Positions 3,743 through 22,922 of a stretch of 64,000 nt of DNA are shown in pieces. Made by a program: the position numbers and the translations under genes. Location of the stretch: IMG/VR virus record IMGVR_UViG_3300034782_000062, positions 62,001-126,000 of that record; one strand, 5' to 3'. Every line of letters starts with the position of its first letter. The stretch's first letter is position 1. The stretch is from a virus. A model generated the notes under the pieces. The model was not told where the DNA came from and did no database searches. It saw only the letters and a program-made list of their open reading frames with translations.

Positions 3743-4255
3743 ATGAGCAAGTTTCGCGTTCACAAGTCTGTCGTGCAGTCAACCGACGCTATCATCGAGG
3801 CGTTGATTGACCGCATTGTTCAATTCAACTGTCGCCACGTCCCCGCTGACAAGCTCGAAGAGGAGATCGCCAAGTGGACCGAAAAGGCAACCAAGCTCGT
3901 TGCCGAAAAGGTCCAGGTCTGCCTCGATGAGCCGGTCAACCTCTACGGATACCAGGGCGACCGTCGCGACGAGGTTGCTCACGTTCGCATCCCCGCAGAC
4001 GTGGTCAACAAACATCTCGGCGGGGGGCTGTCGAATGACGCCGGTTTTCGCAAGAGTGCCGACGGTTTCGAGGCGATCATCAGCGATTACGACAAGGGCA
4101 AGTGGTGGAACAACCAAGAGGGTCGTTTCTGGCAGGTCGCCGCTGCGAAAGAGGCCGAAGATCTCGCATGGCTCCAACCCAACGTGATCGGCGTCGAGCG
4201 CGTAGAGAATGAAGAGACGGGCTTTATTGAGATTCTCTGCACCGTTCAAGACTAG
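3743..4255 (+). CDS. DUF1257 / Ycf35-like protein
   Basis: 170 residues. The start MSKFRVHKSVVQSTDAIIEA, the central LYGYQGDRR and the late W-N-N-Q-E-G-R-F-W segment fit DUF1257, the family that includes the chloroplast and cyanobacterial Ycf35. Its biochemical role is not established. It sits three bases after the preceding small gene and about 115 bases before a Ycf46-like ATPase, the same trio seen elsewhere for these families. The assignment to DUF1257 rests on pattern recall, not on a search. Confidence 0.65.
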   Translation: MSKFRVHKSVVQSTDAIIEALIDRIVQFNCRHVPADKLEEEIAKWTEKATKLVAEKVQVCLDEPVNLYGYQGDRRDEVAHVRIPADVVNKHLGGGLSNDAGFRKSADGFEAIISDYDKGKWWNNQEGRFWQVAAAKEAEDLAWLQPNVIGVERVENEETGFIEILCTVQD

Positions 4256-4371
4256 CCTATTGCTTCACAATCAAATCGTCATGAGTCGCCGCAAGGCGGC
4301 TCAACAGTGCGTCAAAGTCTGCACGATTTTGGCGTACTGTTGAGTCACTTTCTGGCTCAAATGGAGGGACA

Positions 4372-6078
4372 ATGGCAGCTAACAAAAAGAATGGTAAGAA
4401 CATGCTTGCGCGTGTGCAGACCATCATCTCGGCGCGGGTTCCCGTGATCTGGTTTCTCACCGGTGAGGAGCAACGAGCCGAAAGTGGACTGGCAAATCTC
4501 GCGAAAAACATGGACTTCAAGGGGCACAAGGGAATCTGCGCTATCTGGTCTCTGACCAGTGGCCTGGACGGCAAGCCTGGTTGGACGCACGCTGATGGTT
4601 GGCTCGAAGAGCGAATCAACGGCAAGGCAGTCAACACGCCGATCCCCGACAATTTCGCTCCAAACGCTCAAATGGCTTCGAGCCCTCACGGGGCGATTCT
4701 CCAGGCTAAGAAATTTGCCCTGGAGAACAAAACGCAACCCATGATCCTCGTGGTCAGGGACGCTCACATGTTCATGGGTTCCGACCCGTGGCGGCGAGCG
4801 TTGAAGGACTGCGCCCGTGAGTTGCGCAACACGCTCACCACGGTTGTCCTGGTCTCGGTCTCCGACCAGATCAAGGATGACTTGCGGCGACACATTGCGC
4901 TGGTCAAGCCGGGATTGCCGAGTGTCGAGGTGTTGACTTCAAACGCCAAAAACGCTCTTGCAAAGCTCGGTGCAAAAGGCGTTCACCCCCGCGACTGTGC
5001 TCTCGCTTTACGAGGGTTAGGCGTGGGTCAAGCGACCGACTTGATCAAGCTCGACTTTGTCGAGCATGGCGACGTCGATCCAGAGCGTCTTAGTCGACTG
5101 AAGGCCGAAGAGCTTGCATCGGTCCACGGTGTGAGCTTCGAGGGTGAGGCCCATCAAATGGGCCAGGTCGGCGGGCTCGACCACTACAAGCGATGGCTCA
5201 ACAAGCGAACCCACGCCTTCACTCAAGCGGCGAGGGAGCGCGGTATCGATGAGCCCAAGGGTTGCGTTTTCGTCGGTGTGCCAGGGGGTGGAAAGACCCT
5301 CACGGCACGCGCCACGGCGGCAACGCTCAAACAGCCCTTGATCGTTCTCAACCTCAGCGAGTGTGAGGGCGGAATCGTTGGCGAGACTGCGACCAGAATG
5401 GCCGAAGCCTTGCGGACGGTCGATGCACTCGCCCCCTGCACCGTGCTGATCGATGAAATCGAGAAAGCGCTTGGCAGTGGCGGCGAGAATGACGGCGGGA
5501 GCAAGCGAACGCTGGTCCGCTTGCTCTTGATATGGCTCCAGGAGCGTCAATCTCAGGTGTTCACCTGCATCACCTCGAACGATATCAGCGGGCTCCCGCC
5601 CGAGCTGACTCGCAAGGGGCGCGTGGACGAAATCTGGTTTGTCGATCTGCCCAACCAGGCCGACCGCGAAACCATCCTCAACATTCACCTCAACAAGCGG
5701 AGTGAGCGCAAGCTCCCCGCGAAGTCGGTCAAGTCGATCGCTGGCAAGCTCGCCGGTTTCACGGGCAGTGAAATCGAGGAGTCGGTCAAAGAGGCAATCT
5801 TGACTGCGTGGGCTCGATACTGTGAGGGCGAGTCGAAAGACGACACTGTCACAACCGACGACGTCGTCGAGGCGGCGAAAGACATCGTTCCCATGAGCGT
5901 CACCTATGAGGCCAAGCTCGCCGCTCTTCGGGACTGGGCCAAGGGGCGCGCACGCCGCGCCAGCGACCCGGACCCCGATCAGGTCGAGAGCACGCCTGTT
6001 CGTCCCCAGGACGAAGGCGAAGCCCCCGCGCCCGGTACACCGATTTTCAATCGTGAAGCCCTGACCGACCCCTGGTGA
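4372..6078 (+). CDS. Ycf46-like AAA+ ATPase
   Basis: 568 residues. Start ATG behind GGAGGGACA. The N-terminal 240 residues resemble the Ycf46 regulatory part (VPVIWFLTGEEQRAES ... ICAIWSLTSGL). The AAA+ core follows: Walker A GVPGGGKT near residue 302, Walker B VLIDEIEKA near 357, sensor 1 in TSND near 403, and an arginine-finger segment RKGRVDEIWF near 417. A small helical lid domain ends near residue 500 and a charged tail follows. AAA+ proteins of this kind remodel protein complexes using ATP. The substrate is unknown; the neighbouring DUF1257 and DUF2997 proteins are the likely partners. One palindrome copy (6001-6016) lies inside the 3' coding part. Confidence 0.8.
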   Translation: MAANKKNGKNMLARVQTIISARVPVIWFLTGEEQRAESGLANLAKNMDFKGHKGICAIWSLTSGLDGKPGWTHADGWLEERINGKAVNTPIPDNFAPNAQMASSPHGAILQAKKFALENKTQPMILVVRDAHMFMGSDPWRRALKDCARELRNTLTTVVLVSVSDQIKDDLRRHIALVKPGLPSVEVLTSNAKNALAKLGAKGVHPRDCALALRGLGVGQATDLIKLDFVEHGDVDPERLSRLKAEELASVHGVSFEGEAHQMGQVGGLDHYKRWLNKRTHAFTQAARERGIDEPKGCVFVGVPGGGKTLTARATAATLKQPLIVLNLSECEGGIVGETATRMAEALRTVDALAPCTVLIDEIEKALGSGGENDGGSKRTLVRLLLIWLQERQSQVFTCITSNDISGLPPELTRKGRVDEIWFVDLPNQADRETILNIHLNKRSERKLPAKSVKSIAGKLAGFTGSEIEESVKEAILTAWARYCEGESKDDTVTTDDVVEAAKDIVPMSVTYEAKLAALRDWAKGRARRASDPDPDQVESTPVRPQDEGEAPAPGTPIFNREALTDPW

Positions 6079-6108
6079 GACCGCGCAAGCGTCTTCATTC
6101 TACAACGC

Positions 6109-6133
6109 ATCGATCGTCCCCAGGACGGTCGAT
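6109..6133 (+). repeat. Dispersed palindrome copy with long stem
   Basis: ATCGA-T-CGTCC around CCA pairs with GGACG-G-TCGAT: two perfect 5-bp blocks separated by one mismatch. It lies just after the AAA gene and immediately before tRNA-like element A. Confidence 0.6.
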
Positions 6134-6135
6134 CC

Positions 6136-6203
6136 TCTCCGGCAAATGTGGTTCAATCGTCCCCAGGATGATTGAGCGGGTTCGACCCCCGCGTCGGAGA
6201 CCG
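6136..6203 (+). ncRNA. tRNA-like element A (no D arm)
   Basis: An 8-bp closing stem (TCTCCGGC 6136-6143 with GTCGGAGA 6193-6200, one G-T pair) directly abuts a canonical T arm (GCGGG-TTCGACC-CCCGC, 6176-6192). Where D and anticodon arms would be there is a 9-base linker and one long hairpin (6153-6175) made of a palindrome copy with a CCA loop. The bases after the closing stem are CC. The T-loop and acceptor geometry are tRNA-like, but no 7-base anticodon loop exists, so this is not a decoding tRNA. It lies 45 bases before the next start codon. Confidence 0.55.
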
Positions 6204-6247
6204 GGAAACAACAGCCGGCAATGTATCAAGCCGGCAGGAGGGACAAC

Positions 6248-7261
6248 ATGGCTAACGAGACAAACGGAACCGAGACCACCGAGGAGACCACCGAGGAGAC
6301 CACCGAGAGCACCCCCGAGATCGTTCATGTGATCGATCCCGAGTCTCTCGTCATCAAGTCGATTCTCCCCGGCATTCTCGTCAACCTGACCTGTCATATG
6401 CGGGGTGGGCGCGAGACGAAACGGGAGGACATCAAGGTCCGCAAGGGCAAGGGTGGTAAGAAAACCGAGACCTGGAAAGCAGTCCGCGTCATTTACGACG
6501 AGGACGAGCTAAAGCGGGCAGACAAAGAGCGGGCCAAGGTGCATCGTGACGTCAAAAAGCTCGGCTGCGAAACCGCCGTGGGGCTGATCGTCGCGGCACA
6601 CCGCAAGCAAGAGCTTGCGCAGACCCTCTCCGCTTGCCACAACCGGGTCAAGGCGTTCAACAAGACCGCTCAAACCATGGACCTCGTCTTTCGCTATGGT
6701 CTGTACAGTGTCGAGGGCAACAACAGCGGCACTATCGCGGCTGTCACCGAGCAGCTCGGCGACATCTTGGAGCGCGTCAATGGCGCAGTCCAGGCCGACG
6801 AGCAAGCGATCTTGGAGAACGCCCGCGCCAACCAGCTCGGCGACTTCAAGACCGCGAAAGAGGTCATGAAGGCCCCCCGCGAGCAGCGGATCGCCATCAT
6901 CGCCAAGATTCGGGCGGACCTCGCCCGCAAGGCGATCGCCGAAGCCAAGTCATTCTCCACTCTGCTCCCCGAAGAGGCCGGGCTCGCCGTGACCGACATG
7001 GTCGCTTCGATCCGCAAGTCGGCGACGGCTTGGGTCAAGGCGAGCAAGGAATCCGACGAAGAGTATGAGGCCGCGCTCAACACCGTGGACTCCGACATGA
7101 TCAGCGATATGCAGGCCGCGCTCGTCCAGGCGGCGGCACTCGCGGACCAGTCCGCCGAAGCCGAAACCGAAGCGATCGCCGACCAGGGCGACCTCTTCGG
7201 CGACGGCGAGGTGGAGGAGGAGATCGCGGGCGACGGCGACGACATGGTCGGCGCGATCTAG
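6248..7261 (+). CDS. Hypothetical protein downstream of the AAA module
   Basis: 337 residues. The ATG at 6248 is chosen because it follows GGAGGGACAAC; an in-frame ATG at 6221 has no ribosome site. The N-terminus has a Thr/Glu repeat (ETTEETTEETTES). Residues 35-290 are charged and mostly helical, with no cysteine pair or Walker motif. The C-terminus is acidic. It closes the AAA/DUF1257 unit and is followed by a terminator at 7426-7465. No family is recognised, although the position suggests it serves the same process. Confidence 0.65.
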   Translation: MANETNGTETTEETTEETTESTPEIVHVIDPESLVIKSILPGILVNLTCHMRGGRETKREDIKVRKGKGGKKTETWKAVRVIYDEDELKRADKERAKVHRDVKKLGCETAVGLIVAAHRKQELAQTLSACHNRVKAFNKTAQTMDLVFRYGLYSVEGNNSGTIAAVTEQLGDILERVNGAVQADEQAILENARANQLGDFKTAKEVMKAPREQRIAIIAKIRADLARKAIAEAKSFSTLLPEEAGLAVTDMVASIRKSATAWVKASKESDEEYEAALNTVDSDMISDMQAALVQAAALADQSAEAETEAIADQGDLFGDGEVEEEIAGDGDDMVGAI

Positions 7262-7295
7262 CTCGGTTCCGAAACATCGTTACCAACCCGAAACC

Positions 7296-7324
7296 GGCTC
7301 AATCGTCCCCAGGACGGTCGAGCC
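7296..7324 (+). repeat. Dispersed palindrome copy with 13-bp stem
   Basis: GGCTCAATCGTCC pairs with GGACGGTCGAGCC around CCA, with one A-C mismatch and one T-G pair. It sits immediately before tRNA-like element B, as the copy at 6109 sits before element A. Confidence 0.6.
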
Positions 7325-7326
7325 GC

Positions 7327-7393
7327 GCACGGCAAAGCAAGGATCGAACGTCCCCAGGACGGTCGAGCGGGTTCGACTCCCGCGCCGTGCCCC
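7327..7393 (+). ncRNA. tRNA-like element B (no D arm)
   Basis: A perfect 7-bp closing stem (GCACGGC 7327-7333 with GCCGTGC 7384-7390) abuts a perfect T arm (GCGGG-TTCGACT-CCCGC, 7367-7383). The rest is a linker and one palindrome-type hairpin (7344-7366), as in element A. The stem sequence differs completely from element A while the T arm is nearly identical, so structure and T loop are what is conserved. The 3' flank is CCC. No anticodon arm is present. Confidence 0.55.
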
Positions 7394-20364: not shown

Positions 20365-20395
20365 CCTGGTCACTCTGAGAAAGTGGCCAGGGCTC
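20365..20395 (+). ncRNA. Leader hairpin, loop class II-like, before cas12m
   Basis: A 10-bp stem CCTGGTCACT/AGTGGCCAGG (one T-G pair) around CTGAGAA, followed by GCTCC and the ribosome site AAGGAGG. It belongs to the same family as the hairpins before other accessory genes, so the effector gene shares the phage's leader architecture. Confidence 0.6.
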
Positions 20396-20409
20396 CAAGG
20401 AGGCAACAA

Positions 20410-22146
20410 ATGTCCAGAACCATCGTTTTCAATTTTGGAGGCCGTGCACCAACAAAAAACGCACAGCTCGTTCATGACAACATCTACCACGGGCACAACT
20501 ACTACAATAAGCTCATCGAGCTAGAACGTTGTTACCGCAAGGCAATTCGCGCAGCCCAAGCCGAGTTCCCGGAGATCGCAAAAGCTCAGGCACTCTTCGA
20601 TAACGCTGAAGAGGCTGTTGACGGATTGATCGCGCTAAAAAAACTAGCCAAGTCAAGCGACTCAAGTATTACTCCACCAACGCCCGATGAAATGAAAAAG
20701 GCTGTTGCCGAAAAGAAGGCGGCGGCTGCAGCTCTCAAAGACGCCAAGGCCCCTCATGCTGATTCATTGCAAACCAAATACAAGGCAGCCAAGGATGAGC
20801 TAACGGCATCTATAAAAAAGGCTCGATCCGAGACCGAAACTTTCTGGGGAACCTATCTGTGCATCGAGCGAGCGTTTCAGCAAGCCAAGAAAGCAAAGCC
20901 TATTTTTAAGCCTGGCAAAAAGCGCCCCCCATGGACCGAACGGCCAGCGTGGCGAAAATGGACAGGCCATGGTGTTGTTGGCATGCAAATTCAGAATGGG
21001 ATGCCAGCAGAGAACCTGTTCAAACCTAACACGAGATGTTACATAGATCCCCTTCCAGCCAATGCGTACAACACGAACATTCCCCGTGGCCAACGCCGCA
21101 AGATGCAATACACAACCATCCATTTGCGCGTAGGATCTGAAAACAGAAAACCCATATGGGCTGACATCCCCGTTTACCTGCACCGGGGCTTTCCTGCTGG
21201 CGCGATTGTCAAATGGGTATGTGTTATCCGAACCCCATGGCATCAACATCAAGCCTACAAATGGCAGGTACAAATCACTCTTGAGGTCCCCGACGCTTTT
21301 CCAAAAACCAACAAAAAAGCCGTTGCCATTAATTTAGGTTGGCGCAAACTAGCCGATGGATCCCTTCGAGCAGCCACCTGGGTGGATACTGACGGTCAAT
21401 CGGGCGAGATTATTCTAAGCGACAAGGAATTCAGAGATCGTATTGAAAAATACAACAACCTACGATCGATTCGAGACAAACTGATCGATGAAATCCGGCC
21501 TAAGCTCATCATGTCCGGCATCAACTGCGCCAAATGGAAAAGCCCCGACTCTTTTCAAAAACTTTCTCGTCGCGAAGACTTAACCGACGAACAGAGCGCA
21601 ATTTTGAAACCCTGGGCCTACAAAGATAGGCATCTCAATTGGTATGCCCGTGGTGTAAAAAATGGCGCCCTAAACCACCGGCGCGATGTCTATCGAAAGT
21701 TCGCTCTTTACATAGCGACAAACTACGACATCATCATCGCCGAAAAATACGACATGAAGAACATTGTCGAAGACGAAGATCGGAAAAGAGGTCCAGCGGG
21801 TCAGCGGGTTGAAGCTGCCCCATCCATTGCCAGGCAGATCATCGGCAGCACCGCGACACGGCTCGGGTGTCACATTATCGAGGGCCAAACCACATATGCA
21901 ACCCAAGAGTGCTTTTTTTGCGGTTGCACAGAGCCATGGGATGCCTCTGGTAACATCATGCACACCTGCCAGGAATGTGGTGAACATTGGGACCAGGACA
22001 TCAACAATGCCAAGAACATGCTCGCGAGAGCCGCTGATGCAATCAACTCCCTGGACCCGCTCGCACCTAAAAAGTCAAAGAATTACGGATGGAAATCGGT
22101 ACAAGAAAAGAAAAAACAAGGAGATAACGAAGACCACACTGATTAA
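20410..22146 (+). CDS. cas12m: Cas12m-like type V CRISPR effector, probably nuclease-dead
   Basis: 578 residues; ATG 20410 behind AAGGAGGCAACAA. The length and segments match Cas12m (type V-M, formerly V-U1/C2c4) as I recall the Mycolicibacterium protein: an N-terminal region with a long helical pair, then RuvC-I VAINLGWR, KWKSP..F, KDRHLNWYARG..., RRDVYR, RuvC-II IIAEKYDM, a CX2C-X15-CX2C zinc ribbon (C501, C504, C520, C523) and RuvC-III WDQDINNAKNML. RuvC-I has Asn308 where active nucleases have Asp; Glu445 and Asp528/Asp530 are kept. Cas12m is known to process its own crRNA, need no tracrRNA, and silence DNA by binding. The array starts 64 bases downstream. The gene is visibly more AT-rich than its neighbours, suggesting transfer. 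Confidence 0.85.
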   Translation: MSRTIVFNFGGRAPTKNAQLVHDNIYHGHNYYNKLIELERCYRKAIRAAQAEFPEIAKAQALFDNAEEAVDGLIALKKLAKSSDSSITPPTPDEMKKAVAEKKAAAAALKDAKAPHADSLQTKYKAAKDELTASIKKARSETETFWGTYLCIERAFQQAKKAKPIFKPGKKRPPWTERPAWRKWTGHGVVGMQIQNGMPAENLFKPNTRCYIDPLPANAYNTNIPRGQRRKMQYTTIHLRVGSENRKPIWADIPVYLHRGFPAGAIVKWVCVIRTPWHQHQAYKWQVQITLEVPDAFPKTNKKAVAINLGWRKLADGSLRAATWVDTDGQSGEIILSDKEFRDRIEKYNNLRSIRDKLIDEIRPKLIMSGINCAKWKSPDSFQKLSRREDLTDEQSAILKPWAYKDRHLNWYARGVKNGALNHRRDVYRKFALYIATNYDIIIAEKYDMKNIVEDEDRKRGPAGQRVEAAPSIARQIIGSTATRLGCHIIEGQTTYATQECFFCGCTEPWDASGNIMHTCQECGEHWDQDINNAKNMLARAADAINSLDPLAPKKSKNYGWKSVQEKKKQGDNEDHTD

Positions 22147-22209: not shown

Positions 22210-22922
22210 GTCACAAAGGCTATCTCTACAGCCTATGAGTAGAGACATGTAGACGCTTCGCAAACATTCTGTCCTCAAAGGGGTCACAAAGGCTATCTCT
22301 ACAGCCTATGAGTAGAGACAAGTTAGAATTCTTGATCAAAATGCTTCCATTGTTAAGGTCACAAAGGCTATCTCTACAGCCTATGAGTAGAGACGGATAA
22401 ACAGCATCGTAAACTCCACCCTCTGACAGGTCACAAAGGCTATCTCTACAGCCTATGAGTAGAGACAGGACGAGAGGCCGCTGAGGAGCGAGATGTGCGG
22501 GCACGAGTCACAAAGGCTATCTCTACAGCCTATGAGTAGAGACCGGAGCAAGCCCAGGATGTACTCGTGCTCGAAGGACGAAGTCACAAAGGCCATCTCT
22601 ACGGCCTATGAGTAGAGACATCGGTTGTCTTCCTCTGTAAACGATATTTCCCGTCCTGTCATAAAGGCCATCTCTACGGCCTATGAGTAGAGACACTGTA
22701 GAGTAGGGCAGTCCGGTTCCGTTAGCTACGTCCGTCACAAAGGCTATCTCTACAGCCTATGAGTAGAGACTTGCTCCATTCTGAACCGAACCAAACTTGC
22801 GCCTTGGTTGTCATAAAGGCCATCTCTACGGCCTATGAGTAGAGACAGCCCAACTTCAGCACTGGTTCGAGCCGCCGATAGGTGTGTCATAAAGGCCATC
22901 TCTACGGCCTATAAGTAGAGAC
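22210..22922 (+). CRISPR. CRISPR array, 10 repeats of 37 bp and 9 spacers
   Basis: Repeats start at 22210, 22283, 22358, 22430, 22507, 22583, 22658, 22734, 22810 and 22886. Spacers are 35-40 bp. Each repeat begins GTCA(C/T)AAAGGC and ends GAGTAGAGAC. Repeats 1-5 and 8 read AGGCT...AGCCT, and repeats 6, 7, 9 and 10 read AGGCC...GGCCT: a compensatory pair. The last repeat has an extra G-to-A change, marking the distal end and giving the same direction as cas12m. A possible pseudoknot pairs positions 8-12 with 21-25 and 15-20 with 30-35. No cas1, cas2 or tracrRNA is nearby. No spacer match inside the window was noticed by eye. Confidence 0.97.

What the first reader, a model, noticed from the sequence alone, without database searches (positions are those of the whole stretch)
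22210..22922. The CRISPR repeat can fold as an H-type pseudoknot, supported by covariation
Within the 37-base repeat, positions 8-12 pair with 21-25, and 15-20 (CTCTAC) pair with 30-35 (GTAGAG). The two stems interlock, with loop lengths (2, 0 and 4 bases) that suit a coaxial pseudoknot. Repeats 1-5 and 8 have T12-A21, while repeats 6, 7, 9 and 10 have C12-G21: a compensatory change inside one array. The only other change in the stems or loops, G28 to A in repeat 10, falls in the last loop.
Basis: seen in the sequence. Interest (0 to 1): 0.85.

Follow-up and report, generated by a model that had tools for sequence, protein, structure and literature searches.

The report
Phage Cas12m guide-RNA repeat pseudoknot
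A phage carries a small CRISPR system (Cas12m) whose repeat very probably folds into an RNA pseudoknot, but this is the fold already seen by cryo-EM in other Cas12m guide RNAs, so the value here is strong evolutionary support for it rather than a new structure.

Summary
All ten 37-nt repeats (22210-22922) contain two interlocked perfect stems, 8-12/21-25 and 15-20/30-35, and the linked T12-A21 / C12-G21 change is real. The window is part of a 182,770-base virus record. The gene beside the array (20383-22146) is a Cas12m effector.

The pseudoknot is well supported, but not by this array alone, where it rests on one double change in one stem. In 20 Cas12m repeat loci, fixing the register from stem 2 alone makes stem 1 pair at 79 of 100 positions, against 38 ± 5 by shuffling. 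Both stems covary across loci.

The fold is not new. Cryo-EM of Cas12m2 (PMC10442227) and GoCas12m (PMC11013384) shows the same pseudoknot. One refinement: U14 can pair with A36, where Cas12m2 has a G:A pair.

The newer point is that compensatory changes inside single arrays are common in Cas12m: 32 distinct changes against 4-6 in slid registers. One phage array (L042) has 28 different repeats that keep the fold. Verdict: new member of a known kind.

The parts
20383..22146 (+). cas12m-like effector gene, 587 aa, upstream of the array. RuvC residues read N317-E454-D539 (INLGWR / AEKYD / WDQD), so it is probably cleavage-inactive; H267-R268 align with the crRNA-contacting H269-R270 of Cas12m2
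   Evidence: PADLOC Cas12u1 6e-84; PDB 23vw Cas12m 4e-54, 8hhl Cas12m2 4e-25; motif alignment
22210..22922 (+). CRISPR array: 10 repeats of 37 nt and 9 spacers of 35-40 nt
22217..22221 (+). repeat 1, stem 1 5' strand (repeat positions 8-12, AGGCT); same offset in each repeat, AGGCC in repeats 6, 7, 9 and 10
   Evidence: pairs in 79/100 cells at blind register across 20 loci
22222..22223 (+). repeat 1, loop 1 (A13, U14); A13 corresponds to flipped-out A(-24) of Cas12m2, U14 can pair with A36 where Cas12m2 has G(-23):A(-2)
   Evidence: Cas12m2 cryo-EM description
22224..22229 (+). repeat 1, stem 2 5' strand (15-20, CTCTAC)
22230..22234 (+). repeat 1, stem 1 3' strand (21-25, AGCCT; GGCCT in repeats 6, 7, 9 and 10)
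22235..22238 (+). repeat 1, loop 3 (26-29, ATGA; ATAA in repeat 10), expected in the groove of stem 1
   Evidence: loop-ribose contacts in Cas12m2
22239..22244 (+). repeat 1, stem 2 3' strand (30-35, GTAGAG = -8..-3)
22245..22246 (+). repeat 1, A36-C37 (= A(-2), C(-1)), read by the His-Arg pair of the WED domain in Cas12m2
22210..22216 (+). repeat 1, 5' segment GTCACAA outside the fold, expected to be trimmed or disordered (G(-36)..U(-30) is disordered in Cas12m2)

Best explanation
The array is the guide-RNA store of a phage-borne type V-M (Cas12m) system. Each repeat, in the transcript, folds into a compact H-type pseudoknot: a 5-bp stem (8-12/21-25) stacked end to end on a 6-bp stem (15-20/30-35), probably 7 bp with U14:A36. 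Loop 3 lies in the groove of stem 1. The 3' AC leads straight into the guide. Cas12m holds this fold with its WED and RuvC domains, using H267-R268 on A36/C37 and the base pair next to them. The pre-crRNA is cut upstream of the fold. The RNA-protein complex then binds target DNA and, since the first RuvC Asp is Asn, most likely blocks transcription rather than cutting. Shown here: the repeats, the pairing, covariation of both stems across loci, and the effector family. Inferred from Cas12m2/GoCas12m structures: simultaneous formation, coaxial stacking, protein contacts. Inferred only: processing and silencing by this particular system.
For: Effector homology to Cas12m with the His-Arg crRNA-contact motif conserved in 20 of 21 proteins aligned. 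Register fixed from stem 2 alone gives stem 1 pairing in 79/100 cells over 20 loci, against 37.8 ± 4.6 shuffled and 30-49 in slid registers. In 14 repeats of one length class, 96.1% of cells pair, with 39 both-side changes against 9.9 shuffled and at most 12 slid; 4 of 5 stem-1 pairs and 5 of 6 stem-2 pairs change on both sides. A single array, L042, has 46 both-side changes against 14 shuffled and at most 6 slid. Two loci fetched afterwards (L071, L072) fit the same register. Cryo-EM of Cas12m2 and GoCas12m shows this pseudoknot. No anti-repeat nearby, so no sign of a tracrRNA.
Against: In the window alone the covariation is a single event in one stem. ViennaRNA's nested minimum for the free repeat is -8.7 to -9.5 kcal/mol, and stems 1 and 2 alone are of similar energy (-6.2 to -8.6 and -6.7 to -7.5), so the free RNA could populate either hairpin. 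The fourth or outermost stem-1 pair is missing in many relatives. The blind register rule misplaces L054, L029 and L030 (stem 2 extended too far) and L061 (cut short); I counted those against the model.
Confidence: 0.93

Rival explanations
1. Only the 15-20/30-35 hairpin forms and matters; the 8-12/21-25 complementarity is coincidence.
For: Given stem 2, a 5-bp stem 1 arises by chance in 3.8% of shuffles. Nested folding usually picks stem 2.
Against: Stem 1 at the same register in unrelated loci, with compensatory changes at 4 of 5 pairs; cryo-EM of two Cas12m complexes.
Confidence: 0.02
2. Stem 1 and stem 2 are alternative hairpins of a switch, for example stem 1 in the pre-crRNA and stem 2 in the mature crRNA, and never coexist.
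For: The two hairpins have similar energies and nested models cannot hold both. Covariation alone cannot tell simultaneous from alternative pairing.
Against: Loop 1 (2 nt) and loop 2 (0 nt) are constant across loci, as coaxial stacking demands and a switch does not. A rough sum of stack energies (-10.9 and -10.5) plus a pseudoknot penalty recalled from memory as about 9.6 gives near -12 kcal/mol, better than the nested folds. Coexistence is seen in Cas12m2 and GoCas12m.
Confidence: 0.04
3. The conserved inverted segments act at the DNA level, as an integrase or replication-protein site, not as RNA.
For: The segments are inverted repeats in DNA, and phage iterons can look similar (general knowledge, not tested).
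Against: Interlocked inverted repeats cannot form one cruciform; compensatory changes keep pairing while changing sequence, the reverse of a protein-DNA site; no Cas1 in ten virus records; arrays sit beside Cas12m genes.
Confidence: 0.01

Closest known systems
MmCas12m2 crRNA scaffold (type V-M), PMC10442227
   Same: Stem 2 3' strand at -8..-3, A(-2) and C(-1) at the end, flipped-out A before the stem-2 strand, pseudoknot stacked coaxially on the stem, and an effector with the aligned His-Arg pair.
   Different: The window repeat is 37 nt against 36, and the part between the two strands of stem 2 is one base longer (9 against 8 nt). U14:A36 can be Watson-Crick instead of G(-23):A(-2). The RuvC triad reads N-E-D rather than H-D-D.
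GoCas12m and the eight V-M systems of PMC11013384
   Same: The ~30-nt repeat-derived RNA folds into a triplex plus pseudoknot; stems I and II were drawn for the repeats of eight systems, including Meiothermus silvanus (here L031).
   Different: Those rest on repeat comparison and one structure. The word covariation does not occur in that text, and I saw no analysis of changes within an array in the passages read.
Virus Rctr197k (KX853510), L028
   Same: Phage-borne Cas12m with an adjacent array having the same pseudoknot.
   Different: Effector about 30% identical; repeats more degenerate; the record calls the gene transposase-like.
IMG/VR contig 3300025022_000269, L040 (closest effector found)
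   Same: 37% identical effector, Asn at the same RuvC position, same pseudoknot register.
   Different: All ten repeat cores are identical, so there is no in-array covariation.

Membership tests
CRISPR-Cas type V-M (Cas12m) | Effector homologous to Cas12m over most of its length | tested here: met
   PDB 23vw 4e-54 over residues 14-549 and 8hhl/8hio 4e-25; PADLOC Cas12u1 6e-84
CRISPR-Cas type V-M (Cas12m) | Compact effector of about 600 aa with one RuvC domain and zinc finger | tested here: met
   587 aa, Zn-finger cysteines C510/C513 and C529/C532, RuvC motifs
CRISPR-Cas type V-M (Cas12m) | Non-canonical RuvC triad in many members, target binding without cleavage | tested here: inconclusive
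   Residues read N-E-D, consistent with no cleavage, but activity cannot be tested; the family also has D-E-D members
CRISPR-Cas type V-M (Cas12m) | Repeat with stem I and stem II forming a pseudoknot just before the guide | tested here: met
   matched to cryo-EM descriptions
CRISPR-Cas type V-M (Cas12m) | No tracrRNA; crRNA alone guides the effector | tested here: inconclusive
   No anti-repeat longer than 8 nt within about 5 kb upstream and 3 kb downstream, at chance level; RNA not sequenced
CRISPR-Cas type V-M (Cas12m) | 5'-TTN PAM and DNA-binding interference | not testable with these tools
   No protospacers found; needs experiment
H-type RNA pseudoknot | Two interlocked helices with covariation in both | tested here: met
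H-type RNA pseudoknot | Both helices present in the same molecule, coaxially stacked | not testable with these tools
   Shown by cryo-EM for relatives, inferred here

The most novel reading that the evidence does not exclude
In phage Cas12m systems without an adaptation gene, repeats are no longer homogenised by copying, so each drifts alone and is kept working by compensatory changes; a single array is then a natural mutate-and-compensate experiment. In the extreme case (L042) the array holds 28 different repeats trimmed to the 30-nt pseudoknot core, with gaps of 15-21 nt in 26 of 27 cases, so each unit of about 48 nt equals one mature crRNA and there is no spare 5' repeat segment to remove.
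Probability: 0.6. Interest if true: 0.5.

Novelty: new member of a known kind. Interest (0 to 1): 0.33.

Why it matters
It shows that the Cas12m guide-RNA pseudoknot is conserved by selection on pairing rather than on sequence, across phages and plasmids. That gives a search signature for Cas12m arrays too degenerate for ordinary CRISPR finders. It also gives natural tests of which pairs matter when building minimal Cas12m guides, and a way to ask how arrays without Cas1 persist.

Tried and rejected
Scanning genome contigs and viral contigs with the window protein alone found no relatives. A pattern scan of genome contigs for two window-like repeats gave 18 single matches in unrelated organisms, not followed up further and consistent with chance. 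L009 from viral contigs was a lone hairpin with no Cas12m match.

Rfam has no family matching the array. Array against phage and plasmid collections: no match. First 18 nt of each spacer against nearly all of the virus record (2 kb next to the window was not fetched): nothing with 2 or fewer mismatches. Cas1 in the record: none; one Cas2 family: none. Anti-repeat/tracrRNA: none above chance.

My first array finder missed arrays with variable columns and was corrected. No convincing repeat was found beside the L033, L036 and L037 effectors.

Full report
What is there. The window is bases 62001-126000 of a 182,770-base virus record. At 22210-22922 there are ten 37-nt repeats separated by spacers of 35-40 nt. 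Just upstream, on the same strand, is a 587-aa gene (20383-22146). It matches Cas12m structures (PDB 23vw, E 4e-54; Cas12m2 8hhl, E 4e-25) and the PADLOC Cas12u1 model (6e-84). In an alignment of 21 proteins its RuvC positions read N-E-D, and its H267-R268 sits where 19 of the other 20 proteins also have His-Arg. These align with H269-R270 of Cas12m2, which contact C(-1) and the G(-23):A(-2) pair. No Cas1 was found in the record or in nine other virus records that carry relatives, one of them only a 9-kb fragment.

The observation. T12-A21 is in repeats 1-5 and 8, and C12-G21 in 6, 7, 9 and 10. The other differences are C5T (repeats 7, 9, 10) and G28A (repeat 10). Interlocked 5+6 Watson-Crick stems occur in 44 of 60,000 dinucleotide-shuffled repeats; given stem 2, a 5-bp stem 1 occurs in 3.8%. 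The in-array double change probably reflects one event and tests stem 1 only. Taken alone, the window makes the pseudoknot likely but not certain.

Comparison with other Cas12m loci. I collected relatives from the virus Rctr197k (L028), plasmids (L029-L031, L034, L035) and IMG/VR contigs (L040-L062; later L071, L072). For 20 loci I located stem 2 from the 3' end only. I then asked whether stem 1 pairs at the register dictated by a 2-nt loop 1 and no loop 2. It does in 79 of 100 cells. Shuffling the free letters gives 37.8 ± 4.6 (0 of 20,000 reach 79), and sliding the partner by 1-3 bases gives 30-49. In 14 repeats of one length class (two of them the window's two types), 96.1% of cells pair and 39 cells carry changes on both sides, against 9.9 in shuffles and at most 12 in slid registers. 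Four of five stem-1 pairs and five of six stem-2 pairs show such changes. L071 and L072, fetched afterwards, fit the same register. Both stems are therefore maintained by selection on pairing.

Inside single arrays. Compensatory changes within one array are not peculiar to this window. Over 14 arrays I count 32 distinct ones, against 4-6 at each slid register; 11 of the 32 come from L042, and L041 contributes two arrays, so they are not all independent. Examples are Methylomonas koyamae (AACCC/GGGTT to AAGCC/GGCTT), Meiothermus silvanus (last repeat, stem 2) and L054. L047 shows the same C-G/T-A change at the innermost stem-1 pair as the window. In L071 the inner stem-2 pair is A-T in 8 repeats, G-C in 7, G-T in 4 and unpaired in 1. 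The extreme case is L042, identical in three contigs: 28 different repeats in tandem, 89.6% of cells paired, 46 cells changed on both sides against 14.1 shuffled and at most 6 slid. Its conserved unit is just the 30-nt pseudoknot core, with no conserved 5' tag, and 26 of 27 gaps are 15-21 nt. The unit is thus close to one mature crRNA; Cas12m2 uses a 17-bp heteroduplex.

Is the fold known? Yes. The Cas12m2 cryo-EM paper (PMC10442227) describes a crRNA scaffold with a pseudoknot, C(-22)..C(-17) with G(-8)..G(-3), stacked coaxially on a stem, a flipped A(-24), a non-canonical G(-23):A(-2) and a disordered 5' end. GoCas12m (PMC11013384) has a triplex plus pseudoknot, and stems I and II were drawn for eight repeats. 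Numbered from the 3' end, the window's stem-2 3' strand occupies the same positions. A13 corresponds to the flipped base and U14 to G(-23). U14 can form a Watson-Crick pair with A36, so the stem is probably 7 bp and loop 1 is one base.

Mechanism. The pre-crRNA folds at each repeat, Cas12m binds the fold, and cleavage falls upstream of the scaffold (Cas12m2) or within the repeat (MsCas12m). With Asn in place of the first RuvC Asp, the complex most likely acts by binding DNA, as described for V-M. For this locus those steps are inferred. No protospacer was found, so what the phage targets is unknown.

Energies. Nested folding gives -8.7 to -9.5 kcal/mol for the natural and single-change variants. 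The two hairpins alone are -6.2 to -8.6 and -6.7 to -7.5 in the natural variants; stacks alone are about -10.9 and -10.5. With a pseudoknot penalty recalled from memory (about 9.6), the pseudoknot is near -12, so it is plausible without protein, but this is a rough sum.

Verdict. The finding is right and its interpretation sound, but the structure is established for the family: a new member of a known kind. Compensatory changes in CRISPR repeats across species have been known since 2007 (PMC1896005). I found no paper in the held library on compensation within one array or on minimal Cas12m arrays, but that library is incomplete and my searches were few.

Noticed in passing
L042:2719-4047 (IMGVR_UViG_3300024260_000887; same in L069 and L070): Array of 28 all-different repeats reduced to the 30-nt pseudoknot core, with 15-21 nt gaps in 26 of 27 cases, next to a Cas12m gene; structure kept, sequence not. 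Ordinary CRISPR finders would probably miss it.
   Followed up: partly
L053:3415-3668 and 5625-5855, effector about 4001-5416: The only protein of 21 without the His-Arg motif (Asp-Gln instead) also has repeats ending AG rather than AC, as if protein and RNA had changed together at C(-1).
   Followed up: partly
window 20383-22146: RuvC residues read N-E-D; the same Asn is seen in L030, L040, L041, L050, L051 and L052, suggesting many phage and plasmid Cas12m proteins bind without cutting.
   Followed up: partly
L041:2960-3994 and 5875-7330: Pseudoknot repeats lie on both sides of the Cas12m gene at irregular spacing, some single, in a 112-kb virus contig.
   Followed up: partly
L072:5974-6585: Repeats have TA in loop 1, giving A opposite A(-2) where other loci have G or U.
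   Followed up: no
window 22583-22922: Repeat variants are nested and interleaved (repeat 8 is the upstream type among downstream types), which hints at rearrangement of the array rather than simple growth from one end.
   Followed up: no
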